A DNA stretch of 64,000 nt from Gammaproteobacteria bacterium (GTDB taxonomy: Bacteria; Gemmatimonadota; Gemmatimonadetes; Longimicrobiales; Gaopeijiaceae), in assembly GCA_028819075.1 (NCBI GenBank), contig JAPPMM010000045.1, positions 62,001-126,000 on the forward strand. The letters are read 5' to 3'. Below, piece after piece: positions 4,324 to 27,798 of this stretch. Position numbers and translations under genes: made by a program. The number at the start of each line of letters is the position of its first letter. The first letter of the stretch is position 1. Below the pieces are notes generated by a model. That model was given only the letters and a program-made list of their open reading frames with translations, had not been told where the DNA came from and searched no databases.

Positions 4324-4477
4324 GGGGCCTCCTCGCCGTTGTGTTCCTGGGAAACGGTTCTCGTTTCCAGATCGTTGTCGGGGTTCGACGGGCATAGTAA
4401 CGTCTCGCGCCGGGTTTTTCACGCACGCGCGCAGTTCGCGCGATCGGGCACCGACATGAGCCCCGCCGCGAACCGAG

Positions 4478-4560
4478 TGCCGGGAGTGGGATTCGAACCC
4501 ACACAGGCCTGAGCCTGGGGGATTTTAAGTCCCCTGCGTCTACCGTTCCGCCATCCCGGC
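4478..4560 (-). tRNA. tRNA-Leu (anticodon TAA)
   Basis: The minus strand from 4560 folds as a class II tRNA. The acceptor stem GCCGGGA pairs with TCCCGGC, the anticodon stem GGGGA/TCCCC encloses the loop CTTAAAA (anticodon TAA), there is a long variable arm, and the T arm is GTGGG-TTCGAAT-CCCAC. CCA is not encoded. The 5' end overlaps the island attachment repeat (4550-4567), so everything upstream of this tRNA is now island DNA. Confidence 0.95.
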
Positions 4561-4567
4561 AAGATGT
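4550..4567. repeat. attL candidate: tRNA-Leu 5' end core repeat
   Basis: This 18-nt segment begins GCCATCCCGGCA and recurs at 26816-26833 in the same orientation with one mismatch (A at 4562, G at 26828). It covers the first 11 nt of the tRNA-Leu gene plus 7 nt of 5' flank. An integrase gene starts reading 83 nt away. I read it as the left junction of an integrative element inserted at the 5' end of the tRNA. Confidence 0.75.
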
Positions 4568-4649: not shown

Positions 4650-5810
4650 TCAGGTGCCGACTCTCTGACGCTTGGCAAGCGCCTTCCGAAGCTGAGCCTC
4701 GTCCGCCTTCTGATAGCACTGGAGCACCGTCTTGGCCGTCTGCCAGCCCCCGAGCTCGCAGAGCACCTTCAGCGGCTGGTTCATCAGATCCGAAGCGAAC
4801 TTCCGCCTCAGCGAGTGCCAGCCCCGGCCACGCTTCGGCTCCAACCCCGCACGTGTTTCGGCCTTTTGCCACCAGTCACGGACCAGCCAACGGCTGACGC
4901 ATGTGGAGGGATCCGTGGAAGTAGGTAGCACAGGTGTGTCTCCCGAGCCGGAGTTCCTTCGCCGCGCCTCTTCGAGGACCGCGAGCGCTTCGTCGGTCAG
5001 CGGCGTGATGTGCTCGTAGCCGGACTTGTCGTGCTCGCCCCGCCACCGGACGGTCTTCATCTCCATGTCAATGTCGGACCATCTGAGTTGCCGAATAGCC
5101 CCGATGCGATGTCCCGTCTCGTGTGCGAGGACGAGGGCTACGCGGAAGCGCCAGTCCGTATCCGCCGACACCCCGAGCAGGGCTTCGTATTCCGCCTGTG
5201 CCAGAAGCACCCGGGTCGGATTCTTCTCCTTCGGCGTCCTGAGGCCTCTCAGGGGATTCGAGTCGAGCAGGAGTTTTCCGTGCTCGTCCCTCGATTTCGC
5301 GGCCCAGTTGAGCACCGCGATCAGGAACTTGAGGTCATGTTCGATCGTTCGATCGGACACGGGCTTGCCGCTCGGTCCGACTGCGCCCGTCCCCCGCGCC
5401 CGGATGAACCGGTCCCAGTCCCTCCGGGACAGCGTAGCCGGATCTCGGTTCCGTCCGAGGAAGCCCAGAAACATCTTCATCGCGGCTCTGTCGTGGCACC
5501 GCGACTGCCAACCCTTGGTGGGCGTCACCTCATCGACGTAAATGTCAAAAAGCCTTTCCAAGGTGAGCGGTTCGGGCTCGGCTTCCGCCTTGCCGTTCAG
5601 GTCCGGGCCGACGAACCCGGCGGCGAATTCGTCCGCCTGCCGTTTCGCCCTCGCCCAATCGCGGTGTCCAAGCGACCGGGTGAGCCTCCGCCCGTTCTCG
5701 CGCCACTCAATCTGGAAGTTGCCGGTCTTCGGGTCCGGGAAGATCCGGACCCGGTTGCGGCCCCATTCGCCAGCGCCGTACGAGCGCCGACTTCGTTTCG
5801 TGCGTGCCAT
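4650..5810 (-). CDS. int: Tyrosine recombinase / phage-type integrase
   Basis: This 386-residue site-specific tyrosine recombinase presumably integrates and excises the island at tRNA-Leu. An N-terminal arm-binding region (roughly 20-65) and a core-binding SAM-like domain (about 84-185) precede the catalytic domain. The catalytic residues visible are Arg235 (ETGHRIGAIRQL), Lys262, His332 and Arg335 (HSLRRKF), Trp356 (GGWQ, in the usual H/W position) and Tyr366 (LQCYQK). All are present, so it looks active. The gene reads toward the tRNA and stops 83 nt from the att core, the usual arrangement. A diverged copy of its 5' end lies at about 25150-25245. Confidence 0.92.
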   Translation of the reverse strand: MARTKRSRRSYGAGEWGRNRVRIFPDPKTGNFQIEWRENGRRLTRSLGHRDWARAKRQADEFAAGFVGPDLNGKAEAEPEPLTLERLFDIYVDEVTPTKGWQSRCHDRAAMKMFLGFLGRNRDPATLSRRDWDRFIRARGTGAVGPSGKPVSDRTIEHDLKFLIAVLNWAAKSRDEHGKLLLDSNPLRGLRTPKEKNPTRVLLAQAEYEALLGVSADTDWRFRVALVLAHETGHRIGAIRQLRWSDIDMEMKTVRWRGEHDKSGYEHITPLTDEALAVLEEARRRNSGSGDTPVLPTSTDPSTCVSRWLVRDWWQKAETRAGLEPKRGRGWHSLRRKFASDLMNQPLKVLCELGGWQTAKTVLQCYQKADEAQLRKALAKRQRVGT

Positions 5811-6169
5811 CGTTCGATTCCTCTCGATTCGATGGACTGCACGATCTGCGCAACGTAATCTCGCTGGACGACGGTCGCTTGACCAGTGCAGCGCCAGCGC
5901 CGTTCGCGCCTCGAAACGAGCCGCCAGCACCTTGGGATCTAAGGGGAGCGATGGAGCAGCGGCTGCCGGAAGCCGTCCCGCGTCCGGGACCGCACCGGAC
6001 GGCTCGGGACGATTGCCCGCAGCTGCGGCTTGACGCCGCCGAACGCGGTCTCCCGATTCCCACCGGAGGTGACACGTTCACCGCACTCGATAACCGCTGC
6101 GGAGTCCGGATCCTATCGTTGGAGCAGAACCTTAATGTACGGCAGAGCCTCCGACCGAAGGCGGCCAGG
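5811..6169. other. Intergenic stretch upstream of integrase
   Basis: About 360 bases lie between the divergent integrase and the broken gene at 6170. The first ~80 bases resemble the segment at 25190-25250, which supports duplication of the integrase leader. Open frames exist, but none shows codon structure or a start signal that I trust. Confidence 0.4.
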
Positions 6170-10438: not shown

Positions 10439-10698
10439 GCCGCCGATGTGGCCATCCGCGGCGATCTGGACATCGCCTTCGTGGATCGTCGTTTCTGTGT
10501 CTTCGGCGGTGCTGATGGGGGGTCGCCGTTTGGGCTATTCGTCGCTTCGTAGAGCGCCGCCAAGTGCCACCCGCTCGCGCTCCTGTACTTCCTCAAAATC
10601 CGTCGTTCGCACAGCTTGGAGTTGGGGCACCCTCGCCGCCGCCAGCACCACGCCTACCCCGCAAACCTCTTACCCATGCTTTCGCGCTCACCCCCCTT
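10439..10698. other. Gap with possible LRR-protein remnant
   Basis: This 260-base stretch separates the ATL gene from the stop of the LRR-metallopeptidase lipoprotein. Around 10538-10562 the sequence closely resembles the segment near 24178-24205 that encodes ALYEATDG in the second LRR lipoprotein. A short LRR-gene remnant may therefore be present; otherwise I see nothing. Confidence 0.3.
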
Positions 10699-13059
10699 CT
10701 ACTCCGGAACCGGACGCCGTACGATCCGAACCTCCACCCGCTCCCGGAAGGGCTCGGCGGCCCTGGAGGCCGCCGCGTTGTCCCGCATCCGCCAAGGGGT
10801 CGCCTTTGTCATATCCACCGTGTAGCCCGCGTCCGCCAGCGCCGCGAGGGAAAGGCCGTCGCCGCCGGGGCCGCCCCCCCGTCCCATAAGCTCCGGAACA
10901 TCCCAATGGCACCTGCACCCGTCTTCCTGAAGGGGGACGCCGGGCAGGCCTGAATCGCCGCCGCCCGCTCGGTACGCCTCCACGGCGCTGGGGCCCGTGA
11001 AATGCGCCCGGTCTAGCGTCGTCAATCCGGTACGCACCGGCCACTTCACCAAGCCGAGAATGTGGCCGATCTCATGACGCATCAGCCCCTCAACACCAGC
11101 AAATCTGGGGTGTGCCCGTACCTCTCCGCCTGCAGGCTCGTAGGTCGTGGAATCCTCTTCGCCGGGAGGGAAAAAGCATGCAACGGCATACCCTGCGTAC
11201 CCCGTCTCCGCATCGATCCCGGCGTGAATCAGAAGCTCATCCGCCAGCGCCGTTGCCTCGTCGTTGAAGCATCCGGGCCGCCGATCCTTCCACTCCGTGC
11301 CGCCCAACACGGAAGACCACCAGTCGGCAGCCGCTACCATGGTTTCCTCGAAGGCCAGCGGGGCGGGTTGCTCCATCACAATGTCGATCCCGAACGTTCC
11401 CACGGCCCTCCGCACTGACACGCCCGCGACGGCAAGGTAACCGCCGCCGGAAGGCACTAGCTCCACATCCGCACGGCCGATGCTCCGGGGAATCAGTTCA
11501 AGCCAGCCGTCCGCGAAGGACGCGGCCACAACGCCGGGGTCCGAGACACTCACCGCCGGGGCGTGAAGATCATCCGGCAACGCCAGCGACAGGCCGTTTC
11601 CATCCGCGCGCATCAGCGCGAGAGGCAACAGCCGAACATCGGGGTTGGATCGGCAGGGGTACGGGTAGTTTCTCCGTTCGATCAGCCATGCCCGAAGCTG
11701 GGGATCGTTGGGCACGCAAAGCTTGGGATTGCCCGAAAGAAGGATACTCCCCGTCGGCAAATGGAAGCCGCTGGTAGTGGGCAAGCTCGGTATCAACGCG
11801 AGGTTGACAAGTTCCGGAGGGATCGGGCCGGACAGGTCGTTGTCGTGGAGCCACAGGTCTTTCAAGCTGGAGAGGCCGCCCAACTCCGGGGGGATCGGGC
11901 CGGACAGGTTGTTGTCGTTGAGCAACAGGGCTTCCAAGCTGGGGAGGCCGCCCAACTCCGGGGGGATCGAGCCGGACAGGTCGTTGTCTTGGAGCCACAA
12001 TGTTTCCAGGCTGGCAAGGTTGCCAAGCTCCGGGGGGATCGGGCCAGTCAGGACGTTGTCGTGGAGCAACAGTTGTTCCAAACTGGCGAGGTTACCGATC
12101 TCCGGAGGGATTCGCCCAGTCAGGGCGCGGTTTTCGGTGAACGCCAAGCTTACAAGGCTGGCGAGGTTGCCGATCTCCGGGGGAATGGAGCCGGACAGGG
12201 CATTGCCATCGAGGTACAGGCTCGACACCCTGCCATCGTCCCACACCGACACCCCGTGCCATTCCGCAAGCGGAGCGTCTGTCAGCCAGTTTTCGTTGTT
12301 CGTCCAGTTCGGCCCGTCCGTCGCCTCGAACAGGGCCGCCAACGCCGCCCGGTCGGGATGCTCCGTCACTTCCACCGCAAACGCCGCCCGCGCCTCCAGT
12401 CCGTCGGGATCGCGGGCGGTTACGGTCACGGTTGCCCCGCCATGGGCGACCGGACGAAGCCACACCATCCAAGGGCCTCCGGATCGGGCAGAGCAGCAGC
12501 CAGCCTCGACAACGGACGTGTCGGAGCTTTCCGCATCGAACCACAACGAGTCTCCGTCCGGATCGGTGAACGTGCCCGCCAGCACGTCCACCAGTACTTG
12601 TCCCACTTCATCGATCACGGTTTGCGCCGGGATGTCGTCCCCCGCCGCCACCGGAGCCCGGTTCACCGTCACCGCCACCGCAGCCCGCGCCAACTGTCCG
12701 GACGGGTCCGTTGCTGTCACCGTCACCGTTCCCGCCCCCCCGGTTCCGCCGCCCGTCAGGCGCAACGTGTCCCCGGCCACCACCGCCAACACAACCGCCG
12801 TGTCCGTACTGGACGCCGCGAAGGTGAGCGCGTCCCCGTCCGGATCGGTGAAGTACGTCCCCAAAGCCACCGTCACGGGCTCTGCCGGTCCTGGAAGGCG
12901 TTGCGCGGGAATGTCCCCCGTCACCTCTGGAGGCCGATTAACGGGAGGGGGCGGACGATTTGGGTCCGGGGCAGATGGGGTCGGATCGGGGGCCGTCGCG
13001 TCACCGGAGCACGCGGCCACCAGCAGGACTACCGCTAGTCTGCGCTGGTGTCTCGCCAT
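10699..13059 (-). CDS. Lipoprotein with cadherin-like domains, LRRs and leishmanolysin-like (M8) metallopeptidase
   Basis: This is a 786-residue surface lipoprotein. The lipobox LVAAC puts the lipid on Cys17. Two cadherin/Ig-like repeats with FTDPDGD motifs follow (about 42-133 and 137-233), then plant-type leucine-rich repeats of ~24 residues (276-425; consensus L.G.IPPELGNLASL). The C-terminal part carries HEIGHILGL (His662, Glu663, His666), then FTGPSAVEAY, then CHWDVPELMG. His718 and the Met-turn Met725 match the distal third zinc ligand and Met of leishmanolysin-type peptidases. A secreted, membrane-anchored zinc protease is inferred. The C-terminal tail FRERVEVRI is shared with the paralogue at 22297-24921. 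ATG 13059 is chosen because it begins a proper signal peptide. Confidence 0.85.
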   Translation of the reverse strand: MARHQRRLAVVLLVAACSGDATAPDPTPSAPDPNRPPPPVNRPPEVTGDIPAQRLPGPAEPVTVALGTYFTDPDGDALTFAASSTDTAVVLAVVAGDTLRLTGGGTGGAGTVTVTATDPSGQLARAAVAVTVNRAPVAAGDDIPAQTVIDEVGQVLVDVLAGTFTDPDGDSLWFDAESSDTSVVEAGCCSARSGGPWMVWLRPVAHGGATVTVTARDPDGLEARAAFAVEVTEHPDRAALAALFEATDGPNWTNNENWLTDAPLAEWHGVSVWDDGRVSSLYLDGNALSGSIPPEIGNLASLVSLAFTENRALTGRIPPEIGNLASLEQLLLHDNVLTGPIPPELGNLASLETLWLQDNDLSGSIPPELGGLPSLEALLLNDNNLSGPIPPELGGLSSLKDLWLHDNDLSGPIPPELVNLALIPSLPTTSGFHLPTGSILLSGNPKLCVPNDPQLRAWLIERRNYPYPCRSNPDVRLLPLALMRADGNGLSLALPDDLHAPAVSVSDPGVVAASFADGWLELIPRSIGRADVELVPSGGGYLAVAGVSVRRAVGTFGIDIVMEQPAPLAFEETMVAAADWWSSVLGGTEWKDRRPGCFNDEATALADELLIHAGIDAETGYAGYAVACFFPPGEEDSTTYEPAGGEVRAHPRFAGVEGLMRHEIGHILGLVKWPVRTGLTTLDRAHFTGPSAVEAYRAGGGDSGLPGVPLQEDGCRCHWDVPELMGRGGGPGGDGLSLAALADAGYTVDMTKATPWRMRDNAAASRAAEPFRERVEVRIVRRPVPE
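11785..12234 (-). repeat. Plant-type LRR array in lipoprotein 1
   Basis: About six tandem 72-nt units encode ~24-residue repeats of the form LTGPIPPELGNLASLE.L.L. The units are nearly identical at the IPPELG part and diverge at the exposed positions, as expected for a binding surface. Confidence 0.85.
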
Positions 13060-13114: not shown

Positions 13115-13825
13115 CTAGGCTTGAGAGTCCTCACGCGAGTGCTCCAAGTGCTTGATCCGTTCCTGGGCATCGCGCGGTAGAAACCGAATATCCTTCTCTC
13201 GGACGCGCTTGAACGTGTAGACGTGAACCCGGCCGTCCGAACTCGCGTTCATCAGAGTCCAGAGCTGGATGTCCGGGTTGGACAACTGGATCTGGTGGTG
13301 ATTCAGAAGCGTGATGATCCTATTCAACCACCGGGGAGCCGCGTCCAGAAACGAGAGAGGATCGGCAGTTGGCCCCAGCGTATGAAGCATGTTGCTACAC
13401 CTCCCGTATAGCCTCGGGCACTCATTTCTGGTCAGGAAGCCCGACTCGACCGAAACCGTCTCGATCACCCTGCCGTCCGCGTCCAAGACCTGTCTGGTGG
13501 GGACCGGGTAGTAGTCCTTGTTGGCCGCATCCATGGTCTTCATCAGCAGGGACATCCTCCTCGTCTTCCTGATGTCGGTCCTTCGCTTCTCGTACTCGGA
13601 GAGATCCGACACGAGGGAACCGAGAACGATGGTCTCGAGGATGTTGCGAAGCTGCAGAGCGACAGATTCCGCCATAACCTGTGCGTACATACCATGCATG
13701 CGCAGAAAGAAGTTCACCGCTTCCGTGCGCTTCTTCACCTGCTCCATCAAGTCGCGGTACGAATCCGCGGCGGTGCGGGGCAGTTCCTTGCCGGCGACCG
13801 TCACGGCACCTTCCCGCTGCGCCAT
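13115..13825 (-). CDS. Conserved hypothetical, possibly HEPN-like
   Basis: This 236-residue soluble, mostly helical protein starts at ATG 13825 behind GGAGAAG. It contains KKRTEAVNFFLRMHGMY, a helical stretch LRNILETIVLGSLVSDLSEYEKRR, and YGRCSNMLH, an R-x5-H pattern reminiscent of HEPN-type ribonucleases and related defence proteins. That resemblance is only suggestive. The C-terminus is basic (FKRVREKDIRFLPRDAQERIKHLEHS). It lies upstream of the LRR-metallopeptidase gene on the same strand, 55 nt away, so the two may be co-transcribed. Function is unknown. Confidence 0.6.
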   Translation of the reverse strand: MAQREGAVTVAGKELPRTAADSYRDLMEQVKKRTEAVNFFLRMHGMYAQVMAESVALQLRNILETIVLGSLVSDLSEYEKRRTDIRKTRRMSLLMKTMDAANKDYYPVPTRQVLDADGRVIETVSVESGFLTRNECPRLYGRCSNMLHTLGPTADPLSFLDAAPRWLNRIITLLNHHQIQLSNPDIQLWTLMNASSDGRVHVYTFKRVREKDIRFLPRDAQERIKHLEHSREDSQA

Positions 13826-14077
13826 GGATTGAGCTTCTCCTCGATTCTGGCCACCCGTTCTCTGAGGTCGCCCACATCGTGCATTACCTTGAGCTGGAAC
13901 GCGAGGATGGGTACGCCGATGCCGATAATGGACCATGCTTCGACCGTCATCTGTTTTCTCCGTCCCGCCGTCTTGCTCTACGTTCTTGTTTTTCCCCGAT
14001 ACCTCCGTTCGCCTCCGGGCGACTCCGCAAGGGCACCAGGGCCTTTCGGCGCGTCACCGCCAGCAACAGCCGCAAGT

Positions 14078-14473
14078 TTAGGGCTTCACCGGGTTCGGCT
14101 TCCGCTCCGAGGGCTCGGGAGTCGGGGCGTCTTCGCGCCGTTGCGATCTCTCCGCGAGCAAGGCCACGGTTCGCCGTACGTCTTCAACGGCTGCGCCAAT
14201 CCCGCGCACTTCCGAAAGCGCGTCCCGCAAGCGCCCGTCCATGCGGCCCACCCGCTCACCAATGGCCTTCATTCCGTCTTCGACGTGCCGGAAGTCATTC
14301 CCCCGCAGCCGCTCGTACAGGCGATCCGCCGCCGCTTCGGCGGCCTTCTCGGCCTCCCGCCCCGCCTTCTCCACCGCCCGCGAAACCGTGCGGTCGGACA
14401 GCTTCGCCCACGACCACGCCGCCCCGATCAGCGCGAGCATCGGGAGCACGTCGCCCCATCCCGGCCAGTTCAT
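14078..14473 (-). CDS. Small membrane-anchored coiled-coil protein
   Basis: This is a 131-residue protein. A short N-terminal hydrophobic segment (GWGDVLPMLALIGAAWSWA) is followed by an Ala/Glu/Lys-rich helix (EKAGREAEKAAEAAADRLYERL) and an amphipathic coiled-coil (VEDGMKAIGERVGRMDGRL). GGGGGAGGAACC just upstream of ATG 14473 is a strong ribosome site. Its size and layout resemble small phage accessory or holin-like proteins, but no family is certain. A decayed second copy lies at about 24945-25150 next to the second LRR lipoprotein, so coiled-coil gene and LRR gene seem to travel together. Confidence 0.65.
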   Translation of the reverse strand: MNWPGWGDVLPMLALIGAAWSWAKLSDRTVSRAVEKAGREAEKAAEAAADRLYERLRGNDFRHVEDGMKAIGERVGRMDGRLRDALSEVRGIGAAVEDVRRTVALLAERSQRREDAPTPEPSERKPNPVKP

Positions 14474-14649
14474 GGTTCCTCCCCCTCTATGGGGTCGTGT
14501 GTGTTTAACTCGCGGTCTTCCTGTCAGGTGTTCCGCCAGCGTCACAGCAACATGTTTCAGGGCTTCTGGTGCGTCACGGGTGTGGGAGTCGGTGGCCGGC
14601 CTGTCGGCCAGCGCCATCACTACGGCGCGTACGTCATCCGCCGCATCCG

Positions 14650-15721
14650 GCACCCGAGGGAGAAAGATGCACTCTAGGAGGCACGTGACGCAATTTCCGC
14701 TTCATCCGGTAGTACAGCGCCCGGTAGTAGCTTCCTTTCGTCCGGGCCGCCGCCCACGCCACCTGCGACAACGCATCCCTAAGAGCCACGCGTCCCCCTT
14801 CCTGTCTTCGCGGGACTTTCGCTTCCCGGCGCTCTCGTGGTTGCCCGGGCAGACCCGGGCCCAGGACGCGAGATGCGCGGCGGTCGGGAATCTCGACATG
14901 TCATCGCCGATCTCTGCCAGAAATCGCCTCCGCCGACCGCCGCGCCACCCCCGGAACGCTCTCCAGAAGGGCGAGGGCCGCCCCGAAAGGGCCGGTCGTC
15001 TCCGCGAGGATCCGCGCCTCGATCGTCGCGATCTGGCGGTCCAGCTCGTCGATCATGTCCAGATGTCGGCGAAGCAGGAAGCGGTGGTGGTCGCGAACCA
15101 GCCCGAGAACGACTTCCGCCAGCTCCCGGCGCTTGCACGCAGGCTCCCCTTCGCCAGGCCGGCCGACGGATCGCCCTCGCCCGCGATCATCGCCTCCAGG
15201 ATCGCCCGCCCGGTCGCACCGATGACGTGCGACACCACGGAGCCCAGCTTGACGTTCGTCATTTCCAAGACCTTGCCCACCCGGTTGACCTGCGAACTCC
15301 GCTCCCGCACCAGCGTCTTGCGCAGCCGCGTCAGGTCCCGAGGGTCGCGGATCTCCGCGGGGGGCACGAAGCTTCCCCTGAGCAGCTCACACTCCAGAAG
15401 CTGGGGAACCCATTCACAGTCTCTCACGTCCGTCTTGCGTACGGGAACGTGCTTGACGTGCCGAGCGTTAACCAGCAGCAACCGGAAGCGGTCCTCCAAC
15501 ACGGCCCACACCGGACGCCAGTACACCCCCGTCGACTCCAATGCCGCGTCCGTCACGCCGCGCGACAGCAGCCACGCCCCCAGCCCCTCCAAGCCCTTCA
15601 TCGTCGTCTTGAAGGTCCGCGTCTCCTTCCGGCGAGACCTCTCCCCACCCGGCCGCGGCGTCCGTACGAACGCCACCACCGTCCTCTTATGCACTTCGAG
15701 GCTCGCGCACCGCTCGATCAC
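14650..15721 (-). pseudogene. IS110-family transposase remnant
   Basis: The N-terminal DEDD half (15721 to ~15130) reads LEVHKRTVVAFVR, ALESTGVYWRPVW and NARHVKHVPVRKTDVRDCEWV, typical of IS110 transposases; the usual first Asp (LDVHK) is Glu here. The frame then breaks. FLLRRHLDMIDELDRQIATIEARI and LALLESVPGVARR continue in another frame around 15085-14950. SRFPTAAHLASWARVCPGN continues in a third frame (14899-14770), followed by AAARTKGSYYRALYYR. At least three frame changes make it non-functional. It interrupts the island between the coiled-coil gene and the small gene at 16155. Confidence 0.85.
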
Positions 15722-19512: not shown

Positions 19513-20130
19513 TCACTCTGAAACCTCTCCGTTGACCGGCACCGGCTTACCGCCCTTTAGACGGATTCCGGGATACCGGTACGCGGCGCAGGTACGCAGC
19601 TTGCTGGCTGGCCTTCGGACACCAAAGGTGTGCGTCCGCCCCCCTCGGCCCGATCTGGCCTTGCTTCCTTCGTACTTCCAATCCGACTTGTCCAGGAAGA
19701 CCACGTCCACTCGCCAGATCACCACATACGCGCCCGGCTTGATGGTGCGCGTCGGGTCCACGAGATACCGCCACACGACGTACCAGCCGGGATGGTTATA
19801 GTGTGATTGGATCGACCAAGGTCGCTTGCTGGCCTTACTCTCCAAACAATCCGCAGGGCGCAAGGGCATGGGCGCACCCCGCTTCCGCAGGTCGGGGAAT
19901 CGCGTCTGCGCCTCGAAGCTGTGTCGGTGCTTCTCGTAGTTGCTCACGCTGTCGAGCGCCTTGGTACCGAACATCCCGACGATGGCGCTGAATACGTTCG
20001 CTTGCTCGAAGTACAGATCGATGAAGTCCCGGTCGTTCAGGGACTCCTCGATGAACTGAATGGCCCGACGGATGGCTGCTATGTCCAGCCCCGAAGGCAA
20101 GGCCACACCCGAATCAAACCCGTCAGACAT
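19513..20130 (-). CDS. Putative type II restriction endonuclease (ApaLI-like)
   Basis: This is a 205-residue protein whose start overlaps the end of a DNA methyltransferase gene by 8 nt, the classic layout of a restriction-modification operon. The sequence contains SHYNHPGWYVVWRYLVDPTR, then AYVVIWRVDVVFLDKSDWKYEGSKA, then GGRTHTFGVRRP. From memory this resembles the ApaLI family of endonucleases, but I could not verify it. A catalytic D...(D/E)xK arrangement may lie in DVVFLDKSDWKYE. The C-terminus is basic. If ApaLI-like, the site would be related to GTGCAC; this is conjecture. Confidence 0.6.
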   Translation of the reverse strand: MSDGFDSGVALPSGLDIAAIRRAIQFIEESLNDRDFIDLYFEQANVFSAIVGMFGTKALDSVSNYEKHRHSFEAQTRFPDLRKRGAPMPLRPADCLESKASKRPWSIQSHYNHPGWYVVWRYLVDPTRTIKPGAYVVIWRVDVVFLDKSDWKYEGSKARSGRGGRTHTFGVRRPASKLRTCAAYRYPGIRLKGGKPVPVNGEVSE

Positions 20131-21067
20131 CCAGTGCGGCCAGCTTGGGGATCGCTGCGACGCCCATTGCGTGGTACTCGGGATTCCACTCGATCCCGAC
20201 ACTATGGATGCCCCACGCGGCGGCGGCTGCCAACGTTGATCCAGACCCCGCAAACGGATCAAGCACGATTCCCTTGCCGAGCGGCAAGCTGGACCTCACC
20301 AGTGGGCGAAGGAAGGCCTGTGGCTTCAGTGAAGGGTGTGGGGCGATGGCCCGCTCTCGCCGGGGAGCGCGGCAGGACTTGATCAAGTCCCGAAACGGCT
20401 CGGTCTTGGAGAGTCTTCGCAAGCCCCCGGTACCCCACGCTCGCAGATTGTCCTGAACCCGCCCCTCTATTGGCCGCCTGAAGATCCCCCACGGCTCGAA
20501 GCACGATTTCGGCATGACAGTCACGTCCGGAAACTCCTCGTGCGCGTTCTTCGGACGGTCCCCACCCCTCAACGTATGGACTTCGCGAATCAGCACTCCC
20601 CGCTTCTCGAAACCGGAAGCCAGGAACGGACCAAAAACGAAATCAGATAGCAGCGGGTTCGTGGCAACGAAGACGTGAGCGCCGGGAACGAGCACGGGAA
20701 GGAGCAACCGGGAGAATCTCCCAAAGAACAGCCGGATTGCTTCCTTGTCCTTGTCGCCCAAGACCGTGAAGCGTGGTACGGGTTGACGCTTGCAACCGTC
20801 GAACGAGGGCGGCTGCCTCCAGACGCCGCCCTTCCCGTTCCGGCGCTTCTTCAGTTCCTCCGAAGTGTATTCCACCAACCCGTAGGGTGGGTCCGTGACG
20901 ACGGCGTGAATCGACTTGGGCTTCGCGCTCTTGAGCCACTCGAAAGCATCGCCGTGGATAAGCTCGTAATGAGCAGCAATCGAGGGAGAGGGCTGTGGCA
21001 CCTCCCTCGGTGAGCCCAACGGTAGCCGATTCTGGGCGGGGCGGATGGTGGCCTTCACGACCTTCAC
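20123..21067 (-). CDS. DNA methyltransferase (beta class, N6-adenine or N4-cytosine)
   Basis: This 314-residue SAM-dependent DNA methyltransferase is presumably the protective partner of the endonuclease downstream. Motif IV DPPYGL occurs early (IHAVVTDPPYGLVEY) and motif I with the FxGxG loop near the C-terminus (GIVLDPFAGSGSTLAAAAAWG), so the order is IV-then-I, the beta class. DPPY usually indicates adenine N6 methylation. A central segment (CFEPWGIFRRPIEGRV) and HPSLKPQAFLRPLVR (motif X region) are typical. The start is set at GTG 21067 behind GGAAG; the upstream frame is open but has no further start with a ribosome site. Confidence 0.85.
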   Translation of the reverse strand: MKVVKATIRPAQNRLPLGSPREVPQPSPSIAAHYELIHGDAFEWLKSAKPKSIHAVVTDPPYGLVEYTSEELKKRRNGKGGVWRQPPSFDGCKRQPVPRFTVLGDKDKEAIRLFFGRFSRLLLPVLVPGAHVFVATNPLLSDFVFGPFLASGFEKRGVLIREVHTLRGGDRPKNAHEEFPDVTVMPKSCFEPWGIFRRPIEGRVQDNLRAWGTGGLRRLSKTEPFRDLIKSCRAPRRERAIAPHPSLKPQAFLRPLVRSSLPLGKGIVLDPFAGSGSTLAAAAAWGIHSVGIEWNPEYHAMGVAAIPKLAALDV

Positions 21068-21577
21068 GCTCCGCTTCCTTCCCTTTTGGTTCGCGCCGGG
21101 TGAACTGGCGCAGGAGGTCGATTCGCAGCGTGGCCCGACGCCGCAACGGTGCGGGGGCCTAGGCGGCTCGGTGAAACCGCTCGTGAGGTTCTCGTCGTTT
21201 GCTGTTTTCGGCTCATTTTCTCCGAACGTGGCCTCCACGCCCCGTTTCGTAGCATGGTAGCCACAGCGGCTCGTCCGCCGCAAGGCGTGGGCGTCACGCG
21301 CCGTTCAGTATCTCGTCTGAGTCAGACGACTCGACACCCGCCGCCGGTCCAGTGCTAGGCGGTCAGTGAGCCGTGGTCTCGAACTCCTGACGGCGTTCGC
21401 CCTCGAAAGCAAATCGAGCAACTGACCCTTGGCTGGCTTATCCAAGTGTGGCCCTCCGGCTACCCAGTGGACCGAAAAGGCACAAGTCAGGAACGGTTCT
21501 TCGAGAGCCATCGCAAGAACTCGCCCCTGAACCCAAGACGGAAGCCTGTGAGCATCGGCCCGCAGAGCATCTTCGCA
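21068..21577. other. 510-base gap upstream of the R-M operon
   Basis: Apart from the palindrome at 21313-21329, I find no gene here that I can support. Plus-strand open frames run through but read as the complement of the neighbouring gene. Confidence 0.4.
21313..21329. promoter_or_regulatory. Perfect 8-bp palindrome upstream of the methyltransferase
   Basis: TCGTCTGA and TCAGACGA flank a single G (21313-21329), a perfect inverted repeat about 245 nt upstream of the methyltransferase start. It could be an operator for the restriction-modification operon. No controller gene is visible nearby. Confidence 0.35.
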
Positions 21578-22300
21578 TCAAGGCTTGGACGACTTGGTAC
21601 GCGGTTGTTGCGGGCCGACGAGAGCTTGTGCTCTGGCTACGCGATGGGCTGCCATGAAGACCCGCCCCCCCAAGAGGTCGTGCTCGGCAAGTTCCATTTC
21701 TACCGCGATCTTCTGTCGCACCACGTCATCTCCCGGGTGGTCTAGCTTTGCCGCCGCAATCACGGAGCACCCGTCGAAGATCACGGCCTTCGCGACGACT
21801 ACAAGTGCACGCTCAGACACGATCCGTCCGCTTGCGAGATGAGCTTTCTCGGCAGCCACGGCTGCCGACTTATGGGTCAGGGCGCGAAACTTCATAACGG
21901 CCCCATCCCAAGTTGCGGCGTTGCGGACGGACTTCCAATCGTTGGGCCTCCGGTGCCACTCGTTGCGAGTGCCTCCGTGCCGGGGCGGCAGGGCGGCGTA
22001 GAAGCGCTCACCGTGGCGACCGAGGAGAGCACGTGCTTCGGCCACGAGTTGTTCTGCCATGAAGACCGGGCCATTCGATAACTCAGGTTTGCCGAGTTCC
22101 TTCTTTATCTCCTCTCGAACCCTGGCGGCCTTGGCGGGGGTCACCCGCCCGAGGCCGGGTCTAGAAGGTGGCGCGCCGTCTGCGGGGTAGGCTTCATTTG
22201 CCGCGTCGTAGACTAGTCTTGCTGCATGCCTCACGCGACGGAGAATCTCTTTAGCCGGCACGGTTGATTCCTCGCCGTTCCCCCAGCCGGCGGGGCTCAT
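21578..22300 (-). CDS. Hypothetical protein with internal duplication, coupled to LRR lipoprotein 2
   Basis: This is a 240-residue soluble protein. ATG 22300 overlaps the TGA of the LRR lipoprotein gene (ATGA), so translation is probably coupled. Two segments are related: VREEIKKELG...GPVFMAEQLVAEARALLG and VRQKIAVEMELAEHDLLGGRVFMAAHRVARAQALVG, so the protein is an ancient duplication of a ~75-residue unit. Between them is an acidic/aromatic stretch with TRNEWHRRPNDWKSVRNAATW. No family is recognised. The coupling suggests it works with, or is made in proportion to, the lipoprotein. Confidence 0.6.
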   Translation of the reverse strand: MSPAGWGNGEESTVPAKEILRRVRHAARLVYDAANEAYPADGAPPSRPGLGRVTPAKAARVREEIKKELGKPELSNGPVFMAEQLVAEARALLGRHGERFYAALPPRHGGTRNEWHRRPNDWKSVRNAATWDGAVMKFRALTHKSAAVAAEKAHLASGRIVSERALVVVAKAVIFDGCSVIAAAKLDHPGDDVVRQKIAVEMELAEHDLLGGRVFMAAHRVARAQALVGPQQPRTKSSKP

Positions 22301-24921
22301 CGTCGGGGCTCCGGAACCGGAACCGGCATGATCCGAACCTCCACCGCTTCCCGGAAGCGCTCCCCGGCCATGGCGGCGGCCGCACAGTTGGCTACTTCGC
22401 GGCGTGGAACGGTACGTAGCCACGATTGAAACGCCTCGTCCGTGGGAGCGCATAGGCCGGTGCCCTCCGCTCTGAGCACCCGCAGCCGCCGGAGTTGCGT
22501 CAAACTGCTCGGCAACGGGCCGGTCAGCTCCCTATTCCGCCGGAGGTCCAGCGTTTCCAGGCTGGCGAGGTTGCCCAACTCCGGCGGGATCGGCCCGGTC
22601 AGGCCGGTGCTTCTGAGGTCCAGCCGTACCAGGCTGGTGAAGTTGCCCAACTCTGGAGGAATCGGGCCGGTGAGGCTGTCGTTGCCGCTGAGGTTCAGCG
22701 TTTGCAATCTGGCGAGATCGCCCAACTCCGGCGGGATCGGGCCGGTGAGGTCTCTGCTGACGAGGTTCAGCCCCGTTACCCGCAGCCCGCGTCCTGGCAC
22801 CGGTCTTGTGGCGATCACCCCATGCCATTCCCAAAGCGGGGCGTCCGTCAGCCAGTTCCGGTTGCCCGGTCTATGCCAGTTCGGGTTTGTCCAGTTCGGC
22901 CCGTCCGTCGCATGGTACAGCGCCGCTAGCGCAACCACGTCACAGGTAGGAGCTACACCCGTCCCTCGCGGACCTGACTCGATCCCGGGTCCCCCCAGAT
23001 CGCTCAGCCACGATTGCAACGCCTCATCATCCCAGGGGACGCAAAGAAGGGTGCCCCGCGCGCTGAGCCATCGCAGCCGGAGTTGCGAAAAGCTGTTCGG
23101 CAACGGGCCGGTCAGCCCCTCGTTCCGGTCGAGGTCCAGCGTTTCTAGGCTGGCGAGGTTGCCCAACTCCAGAGGGATCGGGCCGGTGAGTTCGTTCCTG
23201 CCGAGATCCAGCCATTTCAGGCTGGCGAGATCGCCCAACTCTGGAGGGATCGGGCCGGTCAGGCCGTTGGCGCCGAGGTCCAGCCGTTCCAAGCTGGCGA
23301 GGCCGCCCAACTCCGGCGGGATCGAGCCGGTCAGACCGGGGCTATCCTCCCGGCAACACTGTCCATATCGCGAGGCGTTGTATCCGAGGCGCAGCCTTTC
23401 CAGGCTGGCGAGGTTGCCCAGCTCCGACGGGATCGGACCGTCGAGACGGTTGTCTCTGAGGTCCAGCCATACCAAGCTGGCGAGGCCGCCCAACTCCGGC
23501 GGGATCGGGCCGGTGAGGTTGTTGTTTTCGAGGTCCAGTGATCGCAGCCTGGCGAGGTTGCCCAGCTCCGGCGGGATCGAGCCGGTCAGACCGCCCAGTT
23601 CCGACCGATATGGGGTGATCGAGACGTTCCGGCCGAGGTGCAGCGTTTCCAGGCTGGCGAGGTTGCCCAGCTCCGGCGGGATCGGACCGTCGAGGCCGTT
23701 CCAGCTGAGATCCAGCGTTTTAAGGCTGGCGAGATCGCCCAACTCCGGCGGGATCGGACCGGTCAGGCCCTTGCCGCTGATGTTGCCCCTGAGGATCAGC
23801 GTTTCCAAGCTGGCGAGGCCGCCCAGCTCCGGCGGGATCGAGCCGCGGAGGACGTTCCCGCTGAGGTCCAGCGTTCGCAAGCTGGCGAGGCCGCCCAACT
23901 CCGGGGGGATCGGACCGGTGAGGTAGTTCAGCTCGCCCCGGCTTCCCCAATCCATATCCGGACAACTTGGCCATGTCAGGCAGACTTCCAAGCTGATGCC
24001 GAGATGCAGCGTTTCCAAGCTGGTGAGGTTGCCCAGCTCCGGAGGAATCGGACCACCGAGGCCGTTGTCTCTGAGGTCCAGCGATTCTACCCTTCCATCG
24101 GCATCGACCGTCACCCCATGCCATTCCCCAAGCGGGGCGTCCGTCAGCCAGTTTCCGTTGTTCCTCCAGTTCTGGCCGTCTGTCGCTTCGTAGAGCGCCG
24201 TCAGCGCGGCCCGCTCGTCCACTTCCGCCACTTCCGCCGCAAACACGGCCAGCGCCGAGAGTCCGTCCGGATCGCTGGCCGTGACCACCACCGCTCCCGC
24301 GCTGCCGGCGCTCCCGCCCACCAGGCGCAGCGTGTCGCCGTCCACGGCCACCGAGACAACCGCCGTGTCCGCACTGGAGGCCGCGAACGCCAGCGCGTCC
24401 CCGTCCGGATCCGCGAAGTACGCCGACACCTCCACCGCCACCGCCGCCCCCGGTCCCGGAAGCCGTTGCGCCGGGATGCCGCCGCCCACCGCCTCCGGAG
24501 CCCGGTTTACCGTCACCGCCACGGCAGCCACCGCCGACAGCCCGGACGGGTCCGTTGCCGCGACCGCCACCGCTCCCGCGCCCCCGGTCCCGCCGCCCGT
24601 CAGGCGCAGCGTGTCGCCGTCCACGGCCGCCGAGACAACCGCCGTGTCCGCACTGGAGGCCGCGAACGCCAGCGCATCCCCATCCGGATCCGCGAAGTAC
24701 GCCGACACGTCCACCGCCGCCGCCGCCCCCGGTCCCGGAAGCCGTTGCGCCGGGATGCCGCCGCCCACCGCCTCCGGAGCCCGGTTCGCCGCCCCCGCCA
24801 CGCCAGCTCGCGCCGACAGCCCGGACGGTTCCGGATCGGCCGGGGAAGGATCGGGGGCCGTCGCGTCGCCCGAACACCCGGCCGCCAGCAACAGCGCCGC
24901 CAGTTTCAGATAAGGCTTCAT
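22297..24921 (-). CDS. Lipoprotein with cadherin-like domains and long LRR array (paralogue)
   Basis: This 874-residue surface lipoprotein carries the lipobox LLAAGC (Cys16). Two almost identical cadherin-like domains (NRAPEAVGGGIPAQRLPGPG start, FADPDGDALAFAASS core) follow. The remainder is a long plant-type LRR array (LTGPIPPELGNLASLETLDL) in two blocks, each introduced by an ALYEATDGxNW-type cap and a WLTDAPLxEWHGV segment. It lacks the metallopeptidase domain of its paralogue at 10699-13059 but ends with the same kind of tail (FREAVEVRI...PVPEP). It is probably an adhesin or surface recognition protein; the ligand is unknown. Start ATG 24921 gives the signal peptide. Confidence 0.82.
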   Translation of the reverse strand: MKPYLKLAALLLAAGCSGDATAPDPSPADPEPSGLSARAGVAGAANRAPEAVGGGIPAQRLPGPGAAAAVDVSAYFADPDGDALAFAASSADTAVVSAAVDGDTLRLTGGGTGGAGAVAVAATDPSGLSAVAAVAVTVNRAPEAVGGGIPAQRLPGPGAAVAVEVSAYFADPDGDALAFAASSADTAVVSVAVDGDTLRLVGGSAGSAGAVVVTASDPDGLSALAVFAAEVAEVDERAALTALYEATDGQNWRNNGNWLTDAPLGEWHGVTVDADGRVESLDLRDNGLGGPIPPELGNLTSLETLHLGISLEVCLTWPSCPDMDWGSRGELNYLTGPIPPELGGLASLRTLDLSGNVLRGSIPPELGGLASLETLILRGNISGKGLTGPIPPELGDLASLKTLDLSWNGLDGPIPPELGNLASLETLHLGRNVSITPYRSELGGLTGSIPPELGNLARLRSLDLENNNLTGPIPPELGGLASLVWLDLRDNRLDGPIPSELGNLASLERLRLGYNASRYGQCCREDSPGLTGSIPPELGGLASLERLDLGANGLTGPIPPELGDLASLKWLDLGRNELTGPIPLELGNLASLETLDLDRNEGLTGPLPNSFSQLRLRWLSARGTLLCVPWDDEALQSWLSDLGGPGIESGPRGTGVAPTCDVVALAALYHATDGPNWTNPNWHRPGNRNWLTDAPLWEWHGVIATRPVPGRGLRVTGLNLVSRDLTGPIPPELGDLARLQTLNLSGNDSLTGPIPPELGNFTSLVRLDLRSTGLTGPIPPELGNLASLETLDLRRNRELTGPLPSSLTQLRRLRVLRAEGTGLCAPTDEAFQSWLRTVPRREVANCAAAAMAGERFREAVEVRIMPVPVPEPRR
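24322..24786 (-). repeat. Recent tandem duplication of a cadherin-like domain (279-bp period)
   Basis: Positions 24322-24507 and 24601-24786 are nearly identical over 186 bases with an offset of exactly 279 bases (93 codons), so the reading frame is kept. The identity at silent positions indicates a recent in-frame duplication of one domain. Confidence 0.85.
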
Positions 24922-24944: not shown

Positions 24945-25150
24945 GTTCGGGGCGTCTTCGCGCCGTTGCGACCGATCCGCAAGCACGGCCACGGTTCTCC
25001 GCACGGCCTTCCACGACCGCCGTGATCCCGCGCCGTTCCGCTCGTGCTTCCCGCAACCGCCCGTCCATGCGGTCCATCCGCTACCGGATGTCCTTCATCC
25101 CGTCTTCGACGTCGCGGAAATCGTTGCTCTTCAACTGCTCGTACGGGTCT
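24945..25150 (-). pseudogene. Decayed second copy of the coiled-coil membrane protein gene
   Basis: The minus strand reads YEQLKSNDFRDVEDGMKDIR and a stop, then RMDGRLREARAERRGITAVV before the frame is lost. This parallels YERLRGNDFRHVEDGMKAIG...RMDGRLRDALSEVRGIGAAV in the gene at 14078-14473, and the DNA is visibly similar as well. A nonsense change and at least one frameshift mark it as a pseudogene. It sits directly upstream of LRR lipoprotein 2. Confidence 0.75.
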
Positions 25151-26815: not shown

Positions 26816-26833
26816 GCCATCCCGGCAGGATGT
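26816..26833. repeat. attR candidate
   Basis: This is the 18-nt partner of 4550-4567 (17 of 18 identical, same orientation). It lies two bases from the stop codon of the MBL gene at 26836, which suggests that before insertion tRNA-Leu directly followed that gene. Confidence 0.75.
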
Positions 26834-26835
26834 GA

Positions 26836-27798
26836 TTATCGCGGCCCTGGCCGCTCTCTGCGAATCCTGGCCATCAGCGCGAACGGATCGCCGGGCTGCT
26901 CGGCCGAGCCGAACTCCCGATACAGCGTCGCGACGTTGATAACGATCCGTTCGGCATCGCCCCAGGAATCGAAGTCGGCGAGCGAGATGTCCATTGCCGC
27001 ATCATGGACGCTCAAACCCGCGTCGAAGCGGATCCTGGCCTCGTCCCGCACATACACCAGGTAGTCCCGCACCGCCCGGATGCCGCGCTTGTCGGTGACC
27101 GGACCGTGGCCCGGGACCACGACTTCAACAGGCAACCCGAGCATGTAGTCGCACGCAGCGATCCAGTTCGCAACGGGTCCGGCCCACAGGATCGGGTGGC
27201 CCTCGATGAACAGAATATCGCCCGTGAAGACGACCCGATCGTCCGGTACGTAGACCAGGATGTCACCCGTCGTATGGCACGGGCCGAACTGCTTCAGGAC
27301 GATGCTCTTGTCTCCGACGCGCGTCCGGTGATGGCCTTCGAAGGTGGTTGTCGGAAGGACCTGTGTGATTCCTTCGAAGTCAAAGGCGCCGAACGCCTCG
27401 ATGAGGAATCGGCCCGTCTCGCCCATGCCCGGGGCCGCGTCCATGAGCATTGCGAGCCGCTCAGGACTCTGGGCGGTCATCTCCTCGGCTGCGGCCCGTG
27501 AGGCGATGATCTCCGCCCCGGCCACCAACTCGTTGCCGTTGCAGTGGTCGGGGTTGGCGTGCGTGTTGACGGGCTTGTCGACGTTGCGCGCGGCCACGGG
27601 CTCGGCGTCGCGCATGCCAGCGAGCATGGCACGGGTCAGCTTGAGGTCGAACAGGGTGTCCACGAGCAGACTCTCGTCGCCGTCAACGACGAGCCCGGCA
27701 TTGCTCCAACCCCAACCGCCATCGGGCTGGATCCACGCATAGCATCGGGACCCGAGTTCGTGCAGGCCGTGCGTGAAGGGCCGAACGCCAAGTGTCAT
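26836..27798 (-). CDS. MBL-fold metallo-hydrolase
   Basis: This 320-residue metallo-beta-lactamase-fold hydrolase carries the metal motif NTHANPDHCNGNEL (the H-x-N-x-D-H variant common in this family), LKQFGPCHTTGDILVYVPDDRVVFTGDILF (third His and bridging Asp) and VVVPGHGPVTD (last His). No signal peptide is seen, so it is cytoplasmic. The substrate is unknown. ATG 27798 overlaps the TGA of the upstream NhaC-type antiporter gene (ATGA), so the two form an operon. The stop codon lies right beside the island's attR repeat and appears natural. Confidence 0.88.
   Translation of the reverse strand: MTLGVRPFTHGLHELGSRCYAWIQPDGGWGWSNAGLVVDGDESLLVDTLFDLKLTRAMLAGMRDAEPVAARNVDKPVNTHANPDHCNGNELVAGAEIIASRAAAEEMTAQSPERLAMLMDAAPGMGETGRFLIEAFGAFDFEGITQVLPTTTFEGHHRTRVGDKSIVLKQFGPCHTTGDILVYVPDDRVVFTGDILFIEGHPILWAGPVANWIAACDYMLGLPVEVVVPGHGPVTDKRGIRAVRDYLVYVRDEARIRFDAGLSVHDAAMDISLADFDSWGDAERIVINVATLYREFGSAEQPGDPFALMARIRRERPGPR

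What the first reader, a model, noticed from the sequence alone, without database searches (positions are those of the whole stretch)
10699..13059. Membrane-anchored LRR protein fused to a leishmanolysin-like protease
One polypeptide joins a lipid anchor, two cadherin-like domains, a plant-type LRR array and an M8-like metallopeptidase (HEIGH, distal His718 in CHWD, Met-turn). This is a recognition module fused to a cutting module on the cell surface, carried on a mobile island. It could act on host (for example sponge) or competitor surface proteins.
Basis: partly seen in the sequence, partly recalled or inferred. Interest (0 to 1): 0.62.

Follow-up and report, generated by a model that had tools for sequence, protein, structure and literature searches.

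The report
Island-borne LRR lipoprotein with leishmanolysin-like protease
A probably sponge-associated bacterium carries, on a mobile DNA island, a lipid-anchored protein that joins plant-style leucine-rich repeats to a zinc protease built like the Leishmania surface protease GP63, one of at least 18 such repeat-plus-protease proteins in its genome.

Summary
Window 10702-13059 (-) is one open 786-aa frame: lipobox Cys17, two Big_9 domains, six plant-type LRRs, an Ig-like domain and a C-terminal metalloprotease (HEIGH 662-666, His718, Met725). The catalytic domain is leishmanolysin-like. Its model matches 1LML at Z 17.0 over 204 of 211 residues (next best: an MMP at 8.2), and a profile of 47 relatives finds 1LML at 7.6e-16 with the third His and Met-turn aligned. 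Pfam M8 does not detect this protein alone, so it is a divergent M8-like protease. I could not measure the His718-zinc distance.

The island is real: a 22.3-kb element (4568-26833) with a tyrosine integrase at tRNA-Leu, an 18-bp direct repeat, and empty sites in two congeners. A congener carries an LRR-M8 homologue in the same site.

The protein is not unique. This 4.4-Mb genome has at least 4 LRR+M8 and 14 LRR+M66-like proteins, and M66-like genes are expanded across the genus. LRRs occur in four separate M8 clades.

Best reading: an outer-membrane lipoprotein whose LRRs select targets for adjacent proteolysis. Substrate, surface exposure and the role of a sponge host are inferred. New variant of a known kind; interest about 0.5.

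The parts
13012..13059 (-). Lipoprotein signal peptide, residues 1-16 (MARHQRRLAVVLLVAA), followed by lipobox Cys17 at 13009-13011
   Evidence: Read directly; a lipobox-type Cys is also seen by eye in the four close relatives L072-L075. Ser at +2 would predict the outer membrane under the rule known from Gram-negative bacteria (my knowledge).
12667..12936 (-). First Big_9 (Ig/cadherin-like) domain, about residues 42-131
   Evidence: Pfam Big_9: two stretches; the limits of the first are estimated from the sequence
12379..12663 (-). Second Big_9 (Ig/cadherin-like) domain, residues 133-227
   Evidence: Pfam Big_9 best stretch 133-227
11692..12366 (-). LRR region, about residues 232-456: N-cap of the W..NWL....W.GV type, six plant-type repeats (..L..L.L..N.LSG.IPPELG.L.S), Cys-containing C-cap
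   Evidence: Pfam LRR_1 2.9e-16; repeat positions
11401..11649 (-). Ig-like (Big_2-type) domain, residues 471-553, between LRRs and protease
   Evidence: AlphaFold model pLDDT about 90 here; matches to Big_2 and S-layer Ig-like domains
10777..11400 (-). M8-like (leishmanolysin-like) catalytic domain, residues 554-761
   Evidence: Model pLDDT 86.8, pTM 0.87; 1LML Z 17.0, 204/211 residues; profile to 1LML 7.6e-16
11062..11076 (-). HEIGH zinc-binding and catalytic motif, residues 662-666 (HEIGHILG)
   Evidence: H, E, H and the following G invariant in 47 relatives
10885..10908 (-). Third zinc His718 to Met-turn Met725 (HWDVPELM)
   Evidence: H, W and M invariant in 47 relatives; aligned with 1LML SHIKMRNAQDELM
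10702..10776 (-). C-terminal tail (FRERVEVRIVRRPVPE), shared with the protease-less paralogue at 22309-22383
   Evidence: 75-nt repeat, 81% identical
22300..24904 (-). Paralogous lipoprotein: same kind of signal peptide, Big_9-type domains, LRRs and tail, no protease
   Evidence: coordinates by its lipoprotein Met (MKPYLKL...)
4650..5930 (-). Tyrosine recombinase (integrase) of the island
   Evidence: PF00589 5.9e-20; about 20 long copies in the genome at 69-78% identity
4477..4560 (-). tRNA-Leu (taa), integration target at its 5' end
   Evidence: the same integrase-tRNA-Leu order in G008
4550..4567 (.). Direct repeat, left (GCCATCCCGGCAAGATGT)
   Evidence: 17/18 to the right copy; next best place in the window 13/18
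26816..26833 (.). Direct repeat, right (GCCATCCCGGCAGGATGT); the island is 4568-26833
   Evidence: Single copy at the empty sites of G009 and G003

Best explanation
The gene encodes a lipid-anchored, probably outer-membrane, zinc protease of the leishmanolysin type, displayed on a stalk of Ig-like domains and an LRR array. Shown by computation: one polypeptide, lipobox, domain order, leishmanolysin-like fold, conserved catalytic residues, purifying selection, and carriage on an integrase-tRNA-Leu island. Inferred: the protein sits on or near the cell surface, the LRR array binds a protein or glycan partner, and the protease then cuts that partner or its neighbours. Because the probable habitat is a sponge and the repeat-plus-protease repertoire is expanded in this genus, the likeliest use is processing host matrix or defence proteins, or neighbouring microbes' surface proteins, with different front ends giving different targets.
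For: Fold: 1LML Z 17.0 against 8.2 for the next match; profile E 7.6e-16 with the zinc and Met-turn motifs aligned. Catalytic H, E, H, H and M invariant in 47 relatives. Purifying selection in the subfamily: dN/dS 0.22-0.47, rough because dS is high. Front-end swapping: within one well-supported clade (100/99) the same protease sits behind Ig-like domains without LRRs (L072), a short LRR set after many Big_2-type domains (L073), or long LRR arrays (L074, L075). LRRs in four separate M8 clades, 5-6 label changes. Repertoire of at least 18 LRR-protease proteins by pattern count; M66-like genes 8-18 per same-genus genome at least 85% complete, against 0 in 10 of the 11 other genera of the family searched. 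Island.
Against: No activity, localisation, expression or binding data. This protein alone scores nothing against Pfam M8 even at E 1. The loop from His718 to the Met-turn is four residues shorter than in most relatives, although close relatives vary (L074, L075, L073). The LRRs could serve only as a spacer, and the protease could act in the periplasm. The sponge habitat rests on MAG names and prior knowledge.
Confidence: 0.55

Rival explanations
1. A general nutrient-scavenging surface protease. It degrades bulk protein such as sponge collagen or detritus, and the LRR and Ig-like parts only hold the enzyme away from the membrane or give loose adhesion.
For: L072 and most M8-like relatives lack LRRs, so the protease works or worked without them. 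M8-like genes without LRRs also occur in other genera of the order.
Against: LRRs occur with four M8 clades and also with M66-like proteases, which suggests that the combination is useful; the plant-type LRR surface is a common protein-binding scaffold (established knowledge).
Confidence: 0.25
2. A weapon or shield between microbes: the enzyme trims surface proteins or secreted factors of competing bacteria, phages or protists, and island carriage reflects that arms race.
For: Carried on an island that is present or absent between congeners; the island also holds a Type II-like DNA methyltransferase and proteins of unknown function.
Against: Apart from the methyltransferase, none of the island proteins tested matched a PADLOC defence family; no immunity gene was identified; not found in viral contigs or plasmids.
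Confidence: 0.12
3. A protease that is no longer active or is degenerating in a decaying island, with the catalytic motif kept by recency alone.
For: The island contains an IS110-type transposase matching only the N-terminal domain model, a stray LRR-like remnant just downstream (10528-10562) and a protease-less paralogue.
Against: Intact frame; catalytic residues kept in all five clade members at about 60% identity; dN/dS well under 1.
Confidence: 0.08

Closest known systems
Leishmanolysin (GP63, MEROPS M8, PDB 1LML)
   Same: Metzincin fold with HExxHxxG, a distant third His and Met-turn; membrane-anchored surface protease; Z 17.0 over nearly the whole domain
   Different: Bacterial lipid anchor instead of GPI; aligned only to 1LML residues 104-405, so the C-terminal domain of leishmanolysin has no counterpart in the model; shorter spacing between second and third His (52 residues here); fused behind Ig-like domains and LRRs
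Bacterial M8-like proteins of the same order (for example L030, L096)
   Same: Same catalytic motif set, most detected by PF01457
   Different: Mostly without LRRs; the window clade sits on a long branch
LRR + M66-like lipoproteins of the same genome (for example L034, L045)
   Same: Plant-type LRRs joined to an HExxH protease on large ORFs, sometimes with a lipobox
   Different: Protease of another family (PF10462, HELGHN type)
Plant LRR receptor ectodomains and bacterial internalins
   Same: LRR consensus (plant type here) and the idea of an LRR array as binding module
   Different: Those lack a metalloprotease; resemblance of function is from general knowledge
tRNA-targeted integrative islands with tyrosine recombinases
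   Same: Integrase next to a tRNA gene, short direct repeat, empty sites in relatives
   Different: The repeat lies at the 5' end of tRNA-Leu, whereas the 3' end is the usual target (my knowledge)

Membership tests
Leishmanolysin-type (M8) peptidase | HExxHxxG zinc and catalytic motif | tested here: met
   HEIGHILG at 662-669; invariant positions in 47 relatives
Leishmanolysin-type (M8) peptidase | Third zinc His far downstream after an insertion, followed by a Met-turn | tested here: met
   His718, 52 residues after His666, and Met725; aligned with 1LML by profile
Leishmanolysin-type (M8) peptidase | Overall leishmanolysin fold | tested here: met
   1LML Z 17.0, rmsd 3.0, 204/211 residues; next best Z 8.2. 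Foldseek alone gave only weak metzincin matches
Leishmanolysin-type (M8) peptidase | His718 within zinc-binding distance of HEIGH | tested here: inconclusive
Leishmanolysin-type (M8) peptidase | Detection of this protein by Pfam PF01457 (a detection threshold, not a structural trait) | tested here: not met
   No match at E up to 1, though 22 of 26 aligned relatives match at E up to 1 and several exceed the cut-off. I therefore call it M8-like, not a Pfam M8 member
Leishmanolysin-type (M8) peptidase | Zinc-dependent endopeptidase activity | not testable with these tools
   Needs purified protein
Bacterial lipoprotein | Signal peptide with lipobox ending in Cys | tested here: met
   Read in the sequence: MARHQRRLAVVLLVAAC; a lipobox-type Cys also read by eye in four close relatives. 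No signal-peptide predictor was available
Plant-type LRR protein | Repeats of 24 residues with the LxGxIPxxL core | tested here: met
   Spacing 24 and consensus
Integrative island | Integrase, tRNA, flanking direct repeat and empty site in relatives | tested here: met
Integrative island | Excision or transfer observed | not testable with these tools
   Needs reads or experiments

The most novel reading that the evidence does not exclude
A bacterial genus, probably sponge-associated, carries a combinatorial set of anchored, LRR-guided proteases: exchangeable LRR and Ig-like front ends joined repeatedly to two unrelated zinc protease families, partly spread by a tRNA-Leu island family, giving many target specificities at the contact with the host or with other microbes.
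Probability: 0.3. Interest if true: 0.75.

Novelty: new variant of a known kind. Interest (0 to 1): 0.5.

Why it matters
If the LRRs steer the protease, these would be natural programmable proteases, and a large family of related front ends in one genome would give a data set for learning which LRR surface goes with which target. It would also offer a concrete mechanism for the LRR and cadherin-type proteins reported as enriched in sponge symbionts (PMC8163846), whose function is unknown. Even if the LRRs only anchor, the finding extends the leishmanolysin fold to a divergent bacterial subfamily that Pfam misses.

Tried and rejected
Foldseek with the Ig+protease model was filled by Ig-like folds, so the catalytic domain was modelled alone. 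Foldseek with that model gave only weak metzincin matches, best E 0.017; the clear match came from the second aligner. NCBIfam matches to Xanthomonas effectors and internalins are far below their cut-offs and reflect LRRs only; the PHROG match covers only the LRR part. ARAGORN's tRNA-Trp at 10711-10802 lies inside the coding 3' end and was set aside as probably spurious. No relatives were found in plasmids or viral contigs. Literature searches found no paper in the held library on LRR-M8 fusions or leishmanolysin in sponge symbionts; absence there is not proof. A formal link between the integrase copies and LRR genes across the genome was not tested, because contigs are short.

Full report
Observation. 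The frame 10702-13059 (-) is open over 786 residues. It has a signal peptide ending in a lipobox (VAA-Cys17), two Big_9 domains and a plant-type LRR array, and at its C-terminus HEIGH (662-666), His718 and Met725. I count six LRRs by eye; a strict pattern finds five. The motif combination is rare by chance: 6 of 20,000 shuffles. Pfam and NCBIfam see no protease in the protein.

The protease. Relatives from the genome itself and from related genomes were aligned: A1, 26 sequences, and A2, 47 sequences for the catalytic domain. H, E, H and G of HExxHxxG, the third His with the following Trp, and the Met are invariant. A profile of A2 finds leishmanolysin 1LML with E 7.6e-16, far ahead of other chains, and pairs the third His and the Met-turn. 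An AlphaFold model of residues 551-761 (pLDDT 86.8, pTM 0.87) aligns to 1LML with Z 17.0, rmsd 3.0 over 204 of 211 residues; the next chain, an MMP, has Z 8.2. Foldseek by itself ranked only weak metzincin matches, so the fold claim rests on the second aligner plus the profile. Model coordinates could not be read, so the distance from His718 to the zinc site is inferred. Pfam M8 does not detect this protein even at E 1, while 22 of the 26 aligned relatives match at that limit and several genomes hold matches above the cut-off. I therefore call it a divergent M8-like protease.

Other domains. Residues 471-553 form an Ig-like domain with Big_2 and S-layer-type matches. In the nearest relatives the front end changes: no LRR in L072, many Big_2-type domains and few LRRs in L073, long LRR arrays in L074 and L075, always with the same protease and a lipobox-type Cys. 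Their catalytic domains are under purifying selection by a simple pairwise count, dN/dS 0.22-0.47, with high dS.

Repertoire. In the 4.4-Mb genome, 119 stretches match the protein, mainly through Ig-like and LRR parts. In the stretches fetched, a pattern count gives 4 ORFs with LRRs and an M8-like motif, 14 with LRRs and an M66-like HELGHN motif, and about ten with LRRs only. Pfam M66 has 18 matches in this genome, 8-15 in same-genus genomes of at least 85% completeness, and none in 10 of the 11 other genera of the family that were searched. On a tree of 43 M8-like domains, LRR presence needs 5-6 changes and occurs in four separate clades; repeated gain is likely, but some changes may be losses, and the window clade lies on a long branch.

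The island. A tyrosine recombinase at 4650-5930 (PF00589, 5.9e-20) lies beside tRNA-Leu(taa) at 4477-4560. An 18-bp sequence at the 5' end of the tRNA recurs at 26816-26833 with one mismatch; the next best place in the window has 13 of 18. In two congeners, G009 and G003, the sequences left and right of the island meet at a single copy of this repeat. The island is thus 4568-26833. A third congener, G008, has about 24 kb in the same site, including an LRR-M8 homologue (L074) next to its own integrase and tRNA-Leu. Other congeners have short inserts or none. About 20 long copies of the integrase, 69-78% identical, occur in the genome.

Origin. The M8 module is 100% identical in a contig titled RHO2_bin_50 and has congeneric relatives in RHO1_bin_70 and in a MAG titled Gemmatimonadetes. 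RHO probably stands for the sponge Rhopaloeides odorabile; this is my inference, and a paper search did not confirm it. The titles of the RHO bins say Gammaproteobacteria, but the 16S of a congener is only 79.6% identical to E. coli, which fits Gemmatimonadota better. Sponge symbionts are reported to be enriched in LRR and cadherin-type proteins (PMC8163846).

Mechanism. Shown: domain order, fold, conserved catalytic site, lipobox, island. Inferred: outer-membrane placement (Ser after Cys), exposure, LRR binding, and cutting of a bound or neighbouring protein. I put 0.55 on LRR-guided surface proteolysis as a whole and much more on an M8-like zinc protease being present. Rivals are a general nutrient protease, a weapon between microbes, and an inactive relic.

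Verdict. Its fusion is one case of a genus-wide pattern that it could not have seen. New variant of a known kind.

Noticed in passing
G000 contigs C2, C10, C16, C17, C24, C28, C43, C45, C50, C54, C58, C62: Large LRR ORFs with M66-like (HELGHN) proteases; M66-like genes are expanded in this genus and nearly absent from other genera of the family searched.
   Followed up: partly
window 22300-24904 (-): Protease-less paralogue with the same signal-peptide type, LRRs and C-terminal tail; G008 carries a 93%-identical copy in the same island site (L141).
   Followed up: partly
window 26852-27798: About 900 bp beside the right island end are missing at the empty sites of G009 and G003 and occur elsewhere in congeners at 81-82% identity, so this looks like a second insertion.
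   Followed up: partly
window 14057-14653 and 24947-25147: Repeated stretch upstream of the two lipoprotein genes, coding for a coiled-coil-like small protein; also upstream of both LRR-protease genes in L074.
   Followed up: no
window 10528-10562: Short LRR N-cap-like remnant downstream of the gene, a trace of rearrangement.
   Followed up: no
window 10711-10802 (-): ARAGORN tRNA-Trp call inside the coding 3' end, probably spurious.
   Followed up: no
window 13115-13936 (-): Protein of PHROG 13799, unknown function (4.2e-24), directly upstream of the finding.
   Followed up: no
window 20123-21283 (-): Type II-like DNA methyltransferase in the island.
   Followed up: no
G000, 20 or so places: About 20 long copies of the island integrase at 69-78% identity, suggesting a family of related islands.
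   Followed up: no
L092, L093: MAG titles say Gammaproteobacteria although congeners are titled Gemmatimonadetes and a congener's 16S is 79.6% to E. coli.
   Followed up: partly
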